Shown here: in pieces, positions 52,456 to 58,038 of the stretch
How the letters are laid out: every line of letters begins with the position of its first letter
Position numbering within the stretch: position 1 is the first letter of the stretch
From: Aestuariispira insulae
GTDB lineage: Bacteria > Pseudomonadota > Alphaproteobacteria > UBA8366 > Aestuariispiraceae
DNA length: 64,000 nucleotides
Direction: 5' to 3'
Assembly (NCBI RefSeq): GCF_003385955.1
Contig: NZ_QRDW01000008.1
Span: 62,001-126,000, forward strand
The notes under the pieces: model-generated
Database searches by the model: none
Seen by the model: the letters and a program-made list of their open reading frames with translations, nothing else
Told to the model about the DNA's origin: nothing
Made by a program: the position numbers and the translations under genes

Positions 52456-52983
52456 ATGGTGGAAAGCGCAATTAAACTGGTGCGGGCGAATATTGCCACG
52501 CTCGATGTTGATGCTATTGTCAACGCTGCCAACAAAAGCCTGCTGGGCGGCGGGGGTGTTGACGGAGTCATTCATGCGGCTGCCGGTCCCGGCCTTAAGG
52601 AAGAATGCCGGGCCTTTGGCGGCTGTCCGACGGGAGAGGTGCGTATCACATCGGGCCATTCCCTGAAAGCGCGCCATGTGATCCATGCGGTTGGTCCTGT
52701 CTGGAAAGGCGGGGGTGATGGGGAAGAGGATCTGTTGGCACAAACCTATCGGAATATCCTGAAAGCTGCGTCGGACTATGGGCTGGGCCGTGTCGCCATA
52801 CCGGCAATCTCAACCGGTGCCTACTGTTTTCCGGTGGAACTGGCGATCGGGATCGCGGTTCGAGAAATACGGGCAGGCCTGGAACAAGCCGATCAGCCGA
52901 TGGAAATCATTTTTTGTTGTTTCGATCGTAAGACCGTCAAGATTTATGAAAAGGCTTTGGGAATGGTTGCGCAAGAGACATAA
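52456..52983 (+). CDS. Macrodomain protein (O-acetyl-ADP-ribose deacetylase type)
   Basis: A 175-aa macrodomain of the MacroD/YmdB class, which hydrolyses O-acetyl-ADP-ribose and can remove mono-ADP-ribose from Asp/Glu. Key blocks: DVDAIVNAANKSLLGGGGVD (catalytic Asn and Gly-rich loop; the Asp follows in GVDGVIHAAAG), VRITSGHSLKARHVIHAVGP and VAIPAISTGAYCFPVELAIG (diphosphate loop). ATG 52456 has GGGAA upstream and follows the membrane-protein stop by one base. Confidence 0.95.
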   Translation: MVESAIKLVRANIATLDVDAIVNAANKSLLGGGGVDGVIHAAAGPGLKEECRAFGGCPTGEVRITSGHSLKARHVIHAVGPVWKGGGDGEEDLLAQTYRNILKAASDYGLGRVAIPAISTGAYCFPVELAIGIAVREIRAGLEQADQPMEIIFCCFDRKTVKIYEKALGMVAQET

Positions 52984-53020
52984 AAAAGCCGCCGGGAGGG
53001 GGCTAACGCTCCCGGCGGTG
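52984..53020 (-). terminator. Terminator of the bhc operon
   Basis: On the minus strand, stem CCGCCGGGAG/CTCCCGGCGG (53009-53018 and 52989-52998) is followed by C and a run of T (52982-52987 region). It lies 66 bp after the bhcD stop. On the plus strand it also follows the macrodomain stop. Confidence 0.75.
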
Positions 53021-53085: not shown

Positions 53086-54051
53086 TTAGATATCGATGCC
53101 CAGGGCGACACCTTTGTCCTTGGCCAACCTGACGGCCGCATCGGCAACGGCCAGGTCCTGCAGGCCGACACCGGTGCCGTCAAAGAGCGTGATTTCATCG
53201 TCACTGCTGCGGCCCTTATGGTCGCCGTTGATCACGTCACCGATCTGGTTGATGTCATCTTCTTTGATCAACCCTTGTGCAATGGCATGCTGGCATTCGC
53301 CGATCTCGATCGACTGTGCGATCTCGTCGGTGAAGACGGTCGCGGCCGCCACCATATTGGCATCCACTTCCTGCTTGCCCTTGGTGTCGGTGCCCATGCA
53401 GGCGATATGGGTGCCGGGCTTGATCCAGTCTTTCATCAGGAGCGGTTCAAAGCAGCTGGTGATGGTGATGATCACATCGGCCTGCTGCCCCATGGTCTCG
53501 CGGTCCACCGATTCAAACGGCAGGCCCAGCTCCTGGGCTGTCTTTTCCAGATTGCCCAGCATGTTGGGATCCACATTCCAGGCGATCACCTTGTCAAAGT
53601 CCCGCTGGGCAGCTGCGGCGCGCAGCTGGAAAGTGGATTGGTGACCGGCCCCGACCATGCCCAGGATTTTGGAGTCTTTCCTGGATAGATATTTGATCGA
53701 AATCGCGCTGGCAGCGGCCGTCCTGACAGCGGTCAGATAGTTGCCGCCGACCATGGCATGGGGCCGGCCTGTATCCGGATCAAACAGGAAAACAGTGGAC
53801 TGATGGTTGGTCAGGCCCTTTTCCATATTGCCCGGCCAATACCCGCCGGATTTCAAGCCCAGCACCTGACCCGCCCGGTCGAAACCGGATTTGAAACCGT
53901 AGAGCGCATCCGCATGGCCGATGGCTTCGCGGATCACCGGGAAATTATAGGCGTCCTTTTTGGCCATGGCACCAAAGACGGCTTCCACGGCGGTGAAGGC
54001 ATCCTGTTCGGAAATCAGGTCCGGGATGATTTTTTCGGGAATAATCAACAT
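53086..54051 (-). CDS. bhcD: Iminosuccinate reductase (ornithine cyclodeaminase family)
   Basis: Last step of the beta-hydroxyaspartate cycle: NAD(P)H reduction of iminosuccinate to L-aspartate; 321 aa. Ornithine cyclodeaminase/mu-crystallin fold. Substrate-domain features are YNFPVIREAIGHADALYGFK, LKSGGYWPGNMEKGLTNHQS and GGNYLTAVRTAAASAI. The Rossmann domain has LGMVGAGHQSTFQL. THIACMGTDTKGKQEVD and LFDGTGVGLQDLAVADAAV close it. The functional name rests on gene context (bhcB-bhcC upstream) and on resemblance to known BhcD as I recall it. By fold alone it could be alanine or ornithine cyclodeaminase. ATG 54051, 12 bp after the bhcC stop. Confidence 0.88.
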   Translation of the reverse strand: MLIIPEKIIPDLISEQDAFTAVEAVFGAMAKKDAYNFPVIREAIGHADALYGFKSGFDRAGQVLGLKSGGYWPGNMEKGLTNHQSTVFLFDPDTGRPHAMVGGNYLTAVRTAAASAISIKYLSRKDSKILGMVGAGHQSTFQLRAAAAQRDFDKVIAWNVDPNMLGNLEKTAQELGLPFESVDRETMGQQADVIITITSCFEPLLMKDWIKPGTHIACMGTDTKGKQEVDANMVAAATVFTDEIAQSIEIGECQHAIAQGLIKEDDINQIGDVINGDHKGRSSDDEITLFDGTGVGLQDLAVADAAVRLAKDKGVALGIDI

Positions 54052-54062
54052 CTGCCAAATCC

Positions 54063-55226
54063 TTAGTATGCTTTGCCGCGTGCGGTGATCGGCCAGAGGG
54101 TTTCCACCTTGCCGCCCCGAACGCCAACATACCAATCATGGACGTTGCAGGTCGGGTCGCAATGGCCCGGCACTAGGCGCAGTTTTTCATTGATGGCCAA
54201 CTTGCCATCGGGATCGGCGATCACCCCATGCTCATCAGAGCATTTGACATATTCCACATCGTCGCGGCCAAAGATCACCGGCAGGCCGGAATCCACACTC
54301 TGCGCCTTCAGACCGGCGTCACAGATCGCCTTGTCTGCTTTGGCATGGCTCATGACCGAGGTCAGGATGAAAAGAGCATTTTCCCATTCGCCCTGGTCGA
54401 TGCGCTTGCCGTCCTTATCCAGAATGCGGCCGTAATCTGCATCCATGAAAGCATAAGACCCGCATTGCAGTTCGTTATAGACGCCGGACGCCCCTTCGAA
54501 ATAGTAGGAGCCGGTGCCGCCGCCGCCGACAATGTCGCATTCCAGGCCTTCGGCTTTTAAGCCTTCCACAGCATCGACGACCATGGCGACCGCGATATCG
54601 ATCTTGGCCTTGCGGTCCTCGTAGTTATCCAGATGCTGCATTGCGCCCTGATAGGCCTGAATGCCGCCGAATTTGAGGCCGGGGGCGGCGTCGATCGCCT
54701 TGGCGATGGCGACCACATCGGCGGTTGTGGTGACGCCGCAACGGCCGGCACCACAATCAATTTCCACCAGGCACTCGATTTCCGTACCATGTTTGCTGGC
54801 CGCGGCAGAAAGCTCCGCCACATTGGTGATGTCATCGACACAGCACAGCGTGCGCGCACCCAGTTTCGGCAGTTGCGCCATGCGGTCGATCTTTGCCGGG
54901 TCGCGCACCTGGTTGGAGACCAGGATGTCTTTCACCCCGGCGCGGGCGAAGGCTTCCGCCTCGGACACTTTCTGGCAGCAGACACCGCAGGCATCGCCAT
55001 GGTCGATCTGGTAATGGGCGACATCGGCGGATTTATGCATCTTGCCATGTACCCGGTGGCGCATGTTGGTTTCGCGGCAGAAATCACGCATTTTTGCGAT
55101 ATTGCGCTCAAACGCGTCCAGGTCGACAACCAGGCAGGGGGTCTGGATATCGGCTTCGTCCATGCCGATGGCGGCTGGTACGTCATAACCCACTTCCAGT
55201 TTCGAGAAATCAAGTCTGTTGCTCAT
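54063..55226 (-). CDS. bhcC: Beta-hydroxyaspartate aldolase (D-threonine aldolase family)
   Basis: PLP enzyme joining glycine and glyoxylate to (2R,3S)-beta-hydroxyaspartate; 387 aa. An alanine-racemase-like N-terminal barrel begins with DIQTPCLVVDLDAFERNIAK. The PLP Lys is K62 in HRVHGKMHKSADV. GDACGVCCQKVSEAEAFARA and CLVEIDCGAGRCGV follow, with the phosphate-binding GGGGTGSYYFEG. A C-terminal metal-binding end (RLVPGHCDPTCNVHDWYVGV) marks the D-threonine aldolase/DSD1 group. ATG 55226 with GGAG upstream. It lies between bhcB (41 bp) and bhcD (11 bp), which makes the specific assignment strong. Confidence 0.9.
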   Translation of the reverse strand: MSNRLDFSKLEVGYDVPAAIGMDEADIQTPCLVVDLDAFERNIAKMRDFCRETNMRHRVHGKMHKSADVAHYQIDHGDACGVCCQKVSEAEAFARAGVKDILVSNQVRDPAKIDRMAQLPKLGARTLCCVDDITNVAELSAAASKHGTEIECLVEIDCGAGRCGVTTTADVVAIAKAIDAAPGLKFGGIQAYQGAMQHLDNYEDRKAKIDIAVAMVVDAVEGLKAEGLECDIVGGGGTGSYYFEGASGVYNELQCGSYAFMDADYGRILDKDGKRIDQGEWENALFILTSVMSHAKADKAICDAGLKAQSVDSGLPVIFGRDDVEYVKCSDEHGVIADPDGKLAINEKLRLVPGHCDPTCNVHDWYVGVRGGKVETLWPITARGKAY

Positions 55227-55266
55227 TGGGGCTCTCCACTCTTGCATCTTTTATCGATTATTTGTT

Positions 55267-56223
55267 TCAGGCTTTCGGCAGCCAGGGCAGTTTGTTCAGG
55301 TCCACATTGCCGCCGGTGATGATCACGCCGACCCGCTTGCCGGCGAAGGCCTCTTTATTCTTGAGGATGGTGGCCAGCGGCACGGCGCTCGATGGTTCCA
55401 TGACAATCTTCATCCGCTGCCAGATCAGGCGCATGGCCTCGATGATTTCCTCTTCTGTCGCGGTCAGGATGTCGGTGACATGGTTGGAAACGAAATGCCA
55501 AGTCAGGTCTTTCAAGGGTACTTTCAGGCCGTCGGCCACGGTCTGGGGCGCGTCATCGGCAATGATGTGGCCGGCCTTGAAGGAACGGTAGGCGTCATCG
55601 GCGTTTTTCGGCTCGGCCGCGATGATCTCCACATCGGGGGCGATACTGGACAGGGTCAGGCAGGTGCCGGACACCATGCCGCCGCCGCCGATGGGGGCAA
55701 CAACCGCATTCAGCCCCTCCACCTGCTCGGTCAGTTCCAGCGAACAGGTGGCCTGGCCCGAGATCACCCGATGGTCGTTATAAGGATGGACAAACTCTGC
55801 GCCGGACTTGGCGACAACTTCAGCAAAGACCGCTTCTCTGGAAGAGGTGGAGGGTTCGCATTCCACGATGGTGCCGCCATAGCCTCTGACGGCTTCCTTC
55901 TTGGCTTCCGGTGCGGTGCGCGGCATCACAACCGTGACCGGAATGCCCCGGCGACCGGCAGCGTAGGACAGTGACAGCGCGTGATTGCCGGAGGAATGGG
56001 TGGCAACGCCCAGCTTTGCCTTTTCCTCATCCAGGCCAAAAACGGCATTGCTGGCACCGCGCACTTTGAAGGCCCCCGCTTTCTGGAAGTTTTCGCATTT
56101 GAAGAAAAGCTCCGCACCGGCCAGCTTGTTGATAAAGCTGCTGGTCAGAATCGGGGTGCGATGGATGTGGGGCTGGATCCGCTCCTGGGCGTTACGCACA
56201 TCATCGAAGGTAGGTACATACAT
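55267..56223 (-). CDS. bhcB: Erythro-beta-hydroxyaspartate dehydratase
   Basis: PLP dehydratase (threonine-dehydratase/serine-racemase fold, no ACT domain) converting beta-hydroxyaspartate to iminosuccinate; 318 aa. It begins MYVPTFDDVRNAQERIQPHI. The PLP Lys is K53 in AGAFKVRGASNA. GVATHSSGNHALSLSYAAGR binds the substrate carboxylate and GGGGMVSGTCLTLS the phosphate. VGVIITGGNVDLNKLPW ends it. GGGAA lies before ATG 56223. It is the first gene of the bhcB-C-D operon. Without the neighbours it would be annotated only as serine/threonine dehydratase. Confidence 0.9.
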   Translation of the reverse strand: MYVPTFDDVRNAQERIQPHIHRTPILTSSFINKLAGAELFFKCENFQKAGAFKVRGASNAVFGLDEEKAKLGVATHSSGNHALSLSYAAGRRGIPVTVVMPRTAPEAKKEAVRGYGGTIVECEPSTSSREAVFAEVVAKSGAEFVHPYNDHRVISGQATCSLELTEQVEGLNAVVAPIGGGGMVSGTCLTLSSIAPDVEIIAAEPKNADDAYRSFKAGHIIADDAPQTVADGLKVPLKDLTWHFVSNHVTDILTATEEEIIEAMRLIWQRMKIVMEPSSAVPLATILKNKEAFAGKRVGVIITGGNVDLNKLPWLPKA

Positions 56224-56437
56224 CTTGTTGCTTCCCGTCTCGCATTGGAAATCATCGGCTTCCGCGAGAGCCTCCCTGTTGTCCGGCGGACCGGACAGAC
56301 CTCTTGTTTGCGGAAAGGGCCATTCCAGAAAGATGGGCAGCGCTTATGTTTTAGGAAAGCTATAAAAAATAAAATTAATCTTTTAAAAATTTTGATAATA
56401 GAGCAAAGAGACTGATCTTATGGCATTTTTGGGTGGT
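56224..56437 (-). promoter_or_regulatory. AT-rich promoter region of the bhc operon
   Basis: A 214-bp gap between the MarR gene and bhcB. Its distal part (about 56360-56402) is almost pure A/T, very unlike the surrounding coding DNA, with poly-A/T runs that probably carry the bhcB promoter or end the MarR transcript. No IclR gene, the known bhc regulator, lies beside it. Confidence 0.45.
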
Positions 56438-56889: not shown

Positions 56890-58038
56890 TCAGCCTTTCT
56901 TGATGAATGTCTCCAGGGGCCAGCGCGGCGATGGGGCGGACCGGTCTGCATAGCCCAGACGGGCCAGCATCTGGACCGTATCACCCGCGGCGGGGGCTAG
57001 CAATTCATGGATCGCACCGTTATTGCTTGCCATTTCGGGGTATTCCTGCAACGCCTGGCTCATGGGCTGCATGGCAATGCCCTCGGTTTCGGCGCCCAGG
57101 GCAAGGCGCATATAGCTTCTGCCAGCCAAGATCTGATCGGTTCTGGAATTGCCCGGTGTGGTGATCCAGGCAAAACCCATGGCGGTCATGGCGGTGCGCT
57201 CGACCATTTCCAAACCGCCCCGGAAGGCCATGCTGGTGGGATCGTTCAATGTTTCCCTCGTCAGGATACCGGCAAGATTCATGGCTTCCAATACCGGCCC
57301 GCCGAGCGATATGCCATCGGGGTTGGCTTCGATCTCCGCTTTGCCGATGCGCATCAGATCAATACTTTCCTGATGGGCCGGTTTGGTCCGCATTTCCACA
57401 AGCATCGCATCCCGGGTCAGCTTTCGGAGTTTCCCAACAAGGGGATCAGATTGGCTGGTTCTGGTGGCGGCGGTGCCGATTGCTGTACCGGTCAGTTTAT
57501 TGAGGGCATCTTCATCAAGAGGGCGTGACAGGTCGTAAGCCGTGCGGTTCGTGCGTCTGGTCAAAATCGCCGGGAACAGCGGAACATGCGCCAGGTTTTT
57601 GTTTTCCCGCAGGGTTAGATGGGCGATAGGGCGATGATCCAGATGGCGGCCTGGCTCACCCTCGGGGAAATAATCAATGGCGGCGGCATAGCCCTGGGCG
57701 GCCGCCGCGATCCTGAAGGTTTCCAGGAAGCAGCCCAGGCCGATGGTGATCTGCCGATTGAATGGGTCGGTGGCGGGCAGCAGCCGATCCAAATCGCAGG
57801 TGAGGGCGGCATTGAGGCCGGGTTTCAGATGAACGATCCAGGGCTGGCGATTATGTGGGTTGGGGGCCAGCAATGCATAGGACAGCGCTTGCAACAAGGG
57901 ATTCCCGGTTTCTTTTCCGGCATTCCTCCAGGGCGTTAAGGCCCGGCTTGGATCGCGGGTTAGGGCAAAGCCGGCGGCTGAAGCAACAAGAATGCTGCTG
58001 CCCAGTCCGGCAATTTTCAGAAACGTGCGGCGGTCCAT
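56890..58038 (-). CDS. Tat-exported Acg-type nitroreductase-like protein
   Basis: A 382-aa protein with a Tat signal peptide (MDRRTFLKIAGLGSSILVAS) and a nitroreductase-fold body of the Acg family. LLAPNPHNRQPWIVHLKP resembles the FMN-binding SPSxxNxQPW pattern. LTRRTNRTAYDLSRPLDEDA and the late SYMRLALGAETEGIAMQPMS are typical of the group, which may sequester or use FMN outside the cytoplasm. ATG 58038 has AAGGAAAA upstream. It is first in an operon with a MarR regulator and preceded by paired palindromes. Confidence 0.85.
   Translation of the reverse strand: MDRRTFLKIAGLGSSILVASAAGFALTRDPSRALTPWRNAGKETGNPLLQALSYALLAPNPHNRQPWIVHLKPGLNAALTCDLDRLLPATDPFNRQITIGLGCFLETFRIAAAAQGYAAAIDYFPEGEPGRHLDHRPIAHLTLRENKNLAHVPLFPAILTRRTNRTAYDLSRPLDEDALNKLTGTAIGTAATRTSQSDPLVGKLRKLTRDAMLVEMRTKPAHQESIDLMRIGKAEIEANPDGISLGGPVLEAMNLAGILTRETLNDPTSMAFRGGLEMVERTAMTAMGFAWITTPGNSRTDQILAGRSYMRLALGAETEGIAMQPMSQALQEYPEMASNNGAIHELLAPAAGDTVQMLARLGYADRSAPSPRWPLETFIKKG

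What the first reader, a model, noticed from the sequence alone, without database searches (positions are those of the whole stretch)
53086..56223. Beta-hydroxyaspartate cycle operon bhcB-bhcC-bhcD lacking bhcA and bhcR
Three contiguous co-oriented genes encode a PLP dehydratase, a D-threonine-aldolase-type enzyme and an ornithine-cyclodeaminase-type reductase. This is the combination and order of the beta-hydroxyaspartate cycle for glyoxylate/glycolate assimilation described in Paracoccus denitrificans, where bhcA (aspartate-glyoxylate aminotransferase) precedes them and an IclR-type BhcR controls them. Here the operon starts at bhcB, is closed by a terminator after bhcD, and its upstream neighbour is a MarR-nitroreductase unit. 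Either bhcA lies elsewhere, or another transaminase supplies glycine, or the three enzymes serve another purpose such as beta-hydroxyaspartate breakdown.
Basis: partly seen in the sequence, partly recalled or inferred. Interest (0 to 1): 0.7.

Follow-up and report, generated by a model that had tools for sequence, protein, structure and literature searches.

The report
Beta-hydroxyaspartate operon without its aminotransferase
An alphaproteobacterium keeps three of the four enzymes of a recently described route for turning glyoxylate into aspartate, but no copy of the fourth enzyme or of its regulator was found, and it probably uses the aminotransferase of another pathway, the serine cycle, in its place.

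Summary
The three genes are true bhcB, bhcC and bhcD: each scores over the curated cut-off of its own NCBIfam model, and the proteins keep 372 of 373 positions invariant in 79 other loci. They form a tight minus-strand operon closed by a terminator. In the 99.4% complete genome no IclR_C domain was found, hence no BhcR. Two aminotransferases come near BhcA, both under its cut-off. One heads a serine-cycle operon; the other lies beside a urate-oxidase gene. Trees put both outside the BhcA clade. A place inside is rejected for the serine-cycle enzyme (p-AU 1.35e-05 and 2.51e-05), which carries 0 of 10 BhcA-diagnostic residues; a place as sister of BhcA is not rejected (p 0.183). The nearest relatives carry bhcRABCD, so A and R were probably lost. 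Relative G001, also without bhcA beside bhcBCD, has the same type of serine-cycle operon. Best reading: an open beta-hydroxyaspartate route (glycine + glyoxylate to aspartate), with glycine supplied mainly by the serine-cycle serine-glyoxylate aminotransferase. Enzyme activities and the coupling are inferred. This is a new variant of a known pathway.

The parts
55267..56223 (-). bhcB, beta-hydroxyaspartate dehydratase (318 aa)
   Evidence: NF045641 601.5 bits, cut-off 550; single BhcB of the genome at E<=1e-90; 109 of 109 invariant positions kept
54063..55247 (-). bhcC, 3-hydroxy-D-aspartate aldolase (394 aa)
   Evidence: NF045642 745.8 bits, cut-off 690; best PDB match 6qkb D-3-hydroxyaspartate aldolase; 181 of 182 invariant positions kept
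53086..54051 (-). bhcD, iminosuccinate reductase (321 aa from the ATG at 54051; searches used 53086-54045)
   Evidence: NF045643 602 bits, cut-off 500; best PDB match 6rqa iminosuccinate reductase; 82 of 82 invariant positions kept
52982..53018 (-). intrinsic terminator after bhcD: 10-bp GC-rich stem, 10-base loop, six T
   Evidence: read directly from the sequence; overlaps the end of the convergent macro-domain gene
56224..56437 (-). 214-base upstream region of bhcB with an AT-rich part; probable promoter region, no sigma-70-like match found there
56280..56297 (.). perfect palindrome TGTCCGG-N4-CCGGACA ahead of bhcB, possible operator; function unknown
   Evidence: the only exact occurrence in the genome
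56438..56887 (-). MarR-family regulator, next gene upstream; could regulate the operon, untested
56890..58038 (-). Acg-family FMN-binding oxidoreductase (nitroreductase-like), upstream neighbour, probably not part of the pathway
   Evidence: NF047509 245 bits, cut-off 199

Best explanation
bhcBCD encodes an open beta-hydroxyaspartate route. BhcC joins glycine and glyoxylate to beta-hydroxyaspartate, BhcB dehydrates it to iminosuccinate, and BhcD reduces that to L-aspartate. In the known cycle BhcA makes the glycine by transaminating glyoxylate with the aspartate just formed. Here BhcA and its regulator were probably lost, and glycine is most likely made by the serine-glyoxylate aminotransferase that heads the serine-cycle operon on contig C15, with further glycine from the urate-oxidase-linked aminotransferase and general metabolism. 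Net: serine + 2 glyoxylate gives hydroxypyruvate + aspartate; hydroxypyruvate can go on through glycerate kinase and PEP carboxylase, both in the same serine-cycle operon, and aspartate to oxaloacetate through a general aspartate aminotransferase. Shown by sequence: identity and integrity of B, C and D, no BhcA-clade protein and no IclR found in the genome, and the serine-cycle operon. Inferred: enzyme activities, glycine source, physiological coupling and direction.
For: B, C and D over curated cut-offs; 372 of 373 invariant positions kept. Own BhcBCD is sister to G012 (97/94), then G007 (89/96), which carry bhcRABCD, so loss of A and R is the simplest history. IclR_C: 0 matches in own genome, while the same model gives 151.7, 164.7 and 161.5 bits on the BhcR of G012, G007 and Agrobacterium. 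The C15 aminotransferase (640.5 bits, cut-off 650) and the C1 one (599.1) are the only BhcA-model matches above 76 bits. C15 operon: aminotransferase, CoA-ester lyase, malate-CoA ligase beta, its alpha partner, PEP carboxylase, glycerate kinase-like. With reference rows added the tree groups C15 with aminotransferases of the same operon type in Aminobacter and S. meliloti (87/68), outside a 100/100 BhcA clade; two places inside the clade are rejected, p-AU 1.35e-05 and 2.51e-05. BhcA-diagnostic columns: 0 of 10. G001, also bhcBCD without adjacent A, has the same sga-mcl-mtkA-mtkB operon (aminotransferase 83% identical) and the same urate-oxidase/aminotransferase/LysR locus. P. denitrificans BhcA itself uses serine with glyoxylate (KM 2.1 mM, kcat 8.8 per s; passages of PMC9436414), so this chemistry lies within the family.
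Against: No shared operator links bhcBCD with the serine-cycle operon, and they lie on different contigs. G007, G011 and G012 keep both a BhcA and a separate serine-cycle aminotransferase, so the presence of Sga does not by itself make BhcA dispensable. The coincidence of the sga-mcl type with missing bhcA rests on 2 family genomes, and the G001 aminotransferase passes the BhcA cut-off (654 of 650 bits). A sister relation of the C15 pair to the BhcA clade is not rejected (p-AU 0.183; 80/86 in the tree), so some aspartate activity is possible. The AU groups were named after the tree had been seen. C1 supply and growth substrates were not tested.
Confidence: 0.5

Rival explanations
1. The cycle is still closed: the C15 aminotransferase (or the C1 one) also uses aspartate well and serves as a functional BhcA at a distant locus.
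For: It scores 640.5 bits against the BhcA model, just under the cut-off of 650, and its G001 counterpart 654; as a sister of BhcA it is not rejected (p-AU 0.183); BhcA of P. denitrificans is itself broad (serine with glyoxylate or oxaloacetate; passages of PMC9436414).
Against: Two places inside the BhcA clade are rejected (p-AU 1.35e-05 and 2.51e-05); 0 of 10 BhcA-diagnostic residues, for example BhcA GYPYTP against GYFPYTP here; it heads a serine-cycle operon.
Confidence: 0.27
2. The three enzymes serve another purpose, such as breakdown of external beta-hydroxyaspartate or aspartate, or detoxification of glyoxylate, and not net carbon assimilation.
For: The aldolase step is reversible in principle (general knowledge); the genome has a malate synthase as another glyoxylate outlet.
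Against: All invariant positions but one are kept, including 82 of 82 in the reductase; the B-C-D set and order is retained with a MarR and a nitroreductase-like gene upstream and a macro-domain gene downstream, no transporter beside it; a glycolate-oxidase-like GlcD (551 bits, cut-off 567.9) with a second GlcD-like frame beside it is present and could feed glyoxylate.
Confidence: 0.15
3. A real bhcA and bhcR exist but lie in an assembly gap, or the separation is an assembly error.
For: The genome is in 49 contigs; Rhodovulum adriaticum shows that bhcA can sit away from bhcBCD.
Against: 99.4% complete, 0.21% contamination; the operon lies inside a contig with other genes on both sides; no IclR_C match genome-wide; in G001, a single-contig genome, the two close BhcA relatives also fall outside the BhcA clade.
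Confidence: 0.05

Closest known systems
Beta-hydroxyaspartate cycle bhcRABCD of Paracoccus denitrificans
   Same: Orthologous BhcB (74% identical), BhcC (72%), BhcD (64%) in the same order (locus L196)
   Different: No bhcA in the operon, no BhcA-clade protein and no IclR regulator found in the genome
bhcRABCD of the same family (G012, G007)
   Same: Closest BhcBCD; BhcC 93% identical to G012
   Different: They keep bhcA and a divergent bhcR, and in addition a separate serine-cycle aminotransferase beside mtkA; flanking genes differ
Serine-cycle-type operons on plasmids of Aminobacter sp. MSH1 and Sinorhizobium meliloti LMB1
   Same: Aminotransferase 65.5% and 67.9% identical to the C15 enzyme, same order aminotransferase, CoA ester lyase, malate-CoA ligase beta, alpha partner
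   Different: The operon on C15 runs on into ppc and a glycerate kinase; whether those strains have bhc genes was not examined
bhcBCD of Rhodovulum adriaticum DSM 2781 (L131)
   Same: bhcBCD without bhcA beside it
   Different: bhcR still stands beside it and a BhcA over the cut-off, inside the BhcA clade, lies elsewhere

Membership tests
Beta-hydroxyaspartate cycle (BHAC, bhcABCD) | BhcB, beta-hydroxyaspartate dehydratase | tested here: met
   601.5 bits, cut-off 550
Beta-hydroxyaspartate cycle (BHAC, bhcABCD) | BhcC, 3-hydroxy-D-aspartate aldolase | tested here: met
   745.8 bits, cut-off 690
Beta-hydroxyaspartate cycle (BHAC, bhcABCD) | BhcD, iminosuccinate reductase | tested here: met
   602 bits, cut-off 500
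Beta-hydroxyaspartate cycle (BHAC, bhcABCD) | BhcA, aspartate-glyoxylate aminotransferase, closing the cycle | tested here: not met
   Best two matches 640.5 and 599.1 bits, cut-off 650; outside the BhcA clade; C15 at two places inside the clade rejected, as sister of the clade not rejected; 0 of 10 diagnostic residues
Beta-hydroxyaspartate cycle (BHAC, bhcABCD) | BhcR, adjacent IclR-type activator | tested here: not met
   0 IclR_C matches in own genome, 8 of 14 control genomes positive; the model finds three BhcR proteins at 151.7-164.7 bits
Beta-hydroxyaspartate cycle (BHAC, bhcABCD) | Net conversion of two glyoxylate to oxaloacetate, growth on glycolate | not testable with these tools
   needs culture and enzyme assays
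Serine-cycle sga operon (contig C15) | Class V aminotransferase with malyl-CoA lyase, malate-CoA ligase, PEP carboxylase and glycerate kinase in one operon | tested here: met
   malate-CoA ligase beta 724.6 bits, cut-off 604; alpha subunit 432, over a succinate-CoA ligase cut-off of 336; PEP carboxylase 762.4, under its cut-off of 815; lyase and kinase only by matches under cut-off; first four genes in the same order in named plasmids. Other serine-cycle genes were not searched
Serine-cycle sga operon (contig C15) | Serine-glyoxylate specificity | not testable with these tools
   Sga-type motifs; best PDB match is serine-glyoxylate aminotransferase 6pk1

The most novel reading that the evidence does not exclude
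Two C2/C1 assimilation pathways have been fused: the serine cycle's serine-glyoxylate aminotransferase has replaced BhcA, turning the beta-hydroxyaspartate cycle into an open branch that draws glycine from the serine cycle and delivers aspartate. The same replacement may have happened separately in a second genome of the family (G001), whose bhcBCD is strongly diverged.
Probability: 0.4. Interest if true: 0.58.

Novelty: new variant of a known kind. Interest (0 to 1): 0.42.

Why it matters
The beta-hydroxyaspartate cycle is described as important for glycolate conversion in the sea (passages of PMC11323563) and has been built into Arabidopsis and Pseudomonas putida (passages of PMC12214560). 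An organism that keeps the three later enzymes but not BhcA would show that the cycle can be opened, that the glycine donor is exchangeable, and that counting the pathway by BhcC alone overcounts closed cycles. It would give a natural design for coupling the pathway to the serine cycle, and simple enzyme assays would test it.

Tried and rejected
Glycine riboswitch or other known RNA around the operon: no match reached a gathering score; the one listed match (cspA, 15.9 of 78 bits) lies elsewhere. Shared operator between bhcB and the serine-cycle operon: the palindrome at 56280-56297 has no close copy in L026 (3 matches, each with 3 mismatches, none ahead of the operon) and no second exact copy in the genome; of the matches with one mismatch in G012 and G007 none lies at their bhc loci. 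Conserved neighbourhood with relatives' bhc loci: none beyond the bhc genes, apart from partial matches of a histidine-kinase-like protein in 2 of 6 loci. A relict of bhcA or bhcR directly upstream: the 214 bases before bhcB leave no room. Rest of contig C15 (L185-L187, 51,928 bases): only weak LysR matches with the query set. The weaker BhcC matches of G064, G148 and G150 were dropped as cases of the pathway because no BhcB or BhcD was found in the stretches fetched. L086 (a MAG) was not counted as a firm third case: its genome has no BhcA over the cut-off (best 586.3 bits) and that protein groups with the serine-cycle type, but no serine-cycle gene was found in the short flanks held and its completeness is unknown. 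L119's MAG (2.1 Mb) gave no BhcA match, too incomplete to use. The Nature 2019 paper of the cycle is not held, so its statements on distribution could not be checked. Literature on the variant: the listings (30 of 53 papers shown; 15 of 243; 15 of 33; 15 of 201; 9 of 9; 10 of 10) showed no title or abstract start that describes bhcBCD without bhcA; only open-licence PMC papers are in the library. I saw passages of five papers (PMC11323563, PMC9436414, PMC8307300, PMC7574528, PMC12214560), no whole text.
Full report
Observation. The finding's three genes are where it says. On the minus strand lie bhcB (55267-56223), bhcC (54063-55247) and bhcD (53086-54051), separated by 19 and 11 bases. Each passes the curated cut-off of its own NCBIfam equivalog: BhcB 601.5/550, BhcC 745.8/690, BhcD 602/500 bits (the bhcD query lacked its first two residues). 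The best solved relatives are the 3-hydroxyaspartate aldolase 6qkb and the iminosuccinate reductase 6rqa. For BhcB the best solved relatives are serine racemases; no entry named BhcB is among the 60 of 119 shown. Identities to P. denitrificans are 74, 72 and 64%. Of 87 loci tried, 81 had all three genes nearly whole; in the 79 other than this window and G001 (two of them, L028 and L117, from one genome), 373 positions of the three proteins are invariant, and this genome keeps 372 (109 of 109, 181 of 182, 82 of 82). So the genes look intact and constrained. A 10-bp stem with six T follows bhcD (read directly).

What is missing. In an even sample of 385 genomes of the class, 12 have BhcC over the cut-off and 10 of these have a BhcA-family match beside it (compared by eye by position); the two without are this genome and G419. 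Five more have weaker BhcC matches: G287 has the neighbour; G001, G064, G148 and G150 do not, and the last three show no BhcB or BhcD in the stretches fetched either.

The genome. The assembly (4.82 Mb, 49 contigs, 99.4% complete) has two proteins near BhcA: C15:7974-9155 with 640.5 bits and C1:622670-623848 with 599.1 bits, both under the cut-off of 650; three further matches have 75.1 bits or less. It has no IclR_C match, against 8 of 14 control genomes with one; as a check, the same model scores 151.7, 164.7 and 161.5 bits on the BhcR of G012, G007 and Agrobacterium. So BhcR is absent as far as the assembly goes, not merely displaced.

What the two aminotransferases are. The C15 gene heads a minus-strand operon: aminotransferase, CoA-ester lyase, malate-CoA ligase beta, its alpha partner, PEP carboxylase, glycerate kinase (the lyase, the kinase and the carboxylase match under their models' cut-offs). 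This is a serine-cycle arrangement; the first four genes stand in the same order on Aminobacter sp. MSH1 and S. meliloti plasmids, annotated there as class V aminotransferase, CoA ester lyase, malate-CoA ligase beta and succinate-CoA ligase alpha. The names sga, mcl and mtk are labels from general knowledge. The C1 gene stands beside a urate-oxidase-domain gene (PF06181, 425.6 bits), which I call puuD, and a divergent LysR gene.

Trees. Of 121 aminotransferases collected, 71 went into a first tree (near-identical BhcA rows culled, most of the distant group left out): the 41 proteins encoded beside bhc genes form one side of a 100/100 branch together with 3 unlabelled rows, and both own proteins lie outside. 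A second tree of 48 rows, with P. denitrificans, Agrobacterium, Aminobacter and S. meliloti references added and the BhcA rows thinned, again gives the BhcA branch 100/100 and groups the C15 protein with the serine-cycle type (87/68). Holding the C15 pair inside the BhcA clade is rejected (p-AU 1.35e-05 with the G007/G012 BhcA, 2.51e-05 with a wider subclade; groups named after the tree was seen). Against a tidy story: the C15 pair is a weak sister of the BhcA clade (80/86), and a sister relation is not rejected (p-AU 0.183). At 10 columns that mark the BhcA clade (at least 90% in 20 BhcA rows, at most 20% in 14 Sga rows) the C15 protein has the BhcA letter in 0; visible examples are GQFS for GMFS, GYFPYTP for GYPYTP and GLSKVAG for GLG..AG.

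History. Concatenated BhcBCD of this genome is sister to G012 (97/94) and then G007 (89/96). Both carry a divergent IclR gene, bhcA and bhcBCD. So bhcA and bhcR were probably lost in this lineage; bhcBCD also stands among different neighbours. G001, a single-contig genome of the same family, also has bhcBCD without adjacent bhcA, on a long branch (BhcB 579.9 bits, over its cut-off; BhcC 577.1, under 690). G001 departs from the invariant set at 8 BhcB, 31 BhcC and 1 BhcD positions, so its aldolase may have changed. It shares with this genome the sga-mcl-mtkA-mtkB operon (aminotransferase 83% identical) and the urate-oxidase/aminotransferase/LysR locus. The BhcA model scores its sga 654 bits, over the cut-off, although the trees put it with the C15 protein outside BhcA, so the cut-off alone does not separate the two kinds.

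The family of 14 genomes: A, B, C and D together in G005, G007 and G012, in G004 with bhcA cut by a contig end, and in G011 split over contigs; B, C and D without a BhcA-clade gene in G000 and G001; A and C without B in G006; a BhcA-clade gene without a BhcC at E 1e-120 in G008 and G009; neither in G002, G003, G010 and G013 (best BhcA-model scores 573.1 or lower). G007, G011 and G012 have both a BhcA and a separate serine-cycle aminotransferase.

Mechanism. The canonical cycle takes aspartate + glyoxylate to oxaloacetate + glycine by BhcA, then glycine + glyoxylate to beta-hydroxyaspartate, iminosuccinate and aspartate (passages of PMC8307300). Without BhcA the three remaining steps run from glycine and glyoxylate to aspartate. 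The most likely glycine source is the C15 serine-glyoxylate aminotransferase. The exchange is chemically modest: P. denitrificans BhcA itself takes serine with glyoxylate (KM 2.1 mM, kcat 8.8 per s) and with oxaloacetate (KM 7 mM, kcat 25.9 per s; passages of PMC9436414). Glyoxylate could come from a glycolate-oxidase-like GlcD (551 bits, under the cut-off of 567.9; 0 of 14 family genomes pass it, all 14 have such a match) and from the CoA-ester lyase of the serine-cycle operon (inference). A malate synthase is also present. Activities, flux and co-regulation are not shown.

Novelty. The listings of six literature searches of open-licence papers showed none on bhcBCD without bhcA; the defining Nature 2019 paper is not held. 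I rate it a new variant of a known pathway, of moderate interest.

Noticed in passing
G006:C11 (L033:9560-11935): A bhcA-bhcC pair stands without bhcB (no BhcB in the genome at E<=1e-90) and with only a 31% identical BhcD-like stretch upstream: another broken-up bhc set.
   Followed up: partly
G008:C62 (L190:9845-11011), G009:C10 (L189:9628-10794): A BhcA-clade aminotransferase stands alone, beside genes that look like a LysR regulator and an FAD oxidoreductase (by eye), in genomes without a BhcC at E 1e-120.
   Followed up: partly
G419:C1 (L180:5192-10937): Genes that look like glcD, glcE and glcF (by eye) run straight into a bhcC over the cut-off (745.1 bits) and an ORF holding only the C-terminal part of bhcD; no BhcA or BhcB was found in the stretch.
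   Followed up: partly
L131 (Rhodovulum adriaticum DSM 2781): bhcR stands directly before bhcBCD while a BhcA over the cut-off (672.8 bits) lies elsewhere in the genome.
   Followed up: yes
L086 (uncultured Neomegalonema MAG, G424): bhcBCD without bhcA upstream; the genome's best BhcA-model match is 586.3 bits and groups with the serine-cycle type, perhaps a third case of the variant; MAG of unknown completeness.
   Followed up: partly
L097:5267-6973 (Neomegalonema MAG): Only short bhcA remnants precede bhcBCD, next to a divergent gene that looks like serine hydroxymethyltransferase (by eye); may be a MAG artefact.
   Followed up: no
window 56280-56297: Perfect palindrome TGTCCGG-N4-CCGGACA ahead of bhcB, the only exact copy in the genome; 17 matches with up to 3 mismatches in the window against 4.43 expected.
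   Followed up: partly
L026:10662-12008 (own genome, contig C15): A DMSP lyase DddP gene (632.4 bits, cut-off 600) stands next to the LysR gene ahead of the serine-cycle operon, which would fit a marine life style.
   Followed up: no
L027:6427-9957 (own genome, contig C1): Urate-oxidase-domain gene, class V aminotransferase and divergent LysR gene, conserved in G001: perhaps a glyoxylate- or ureidoglycine-transaminating unit of purine breakdown.
   Followed up: partly
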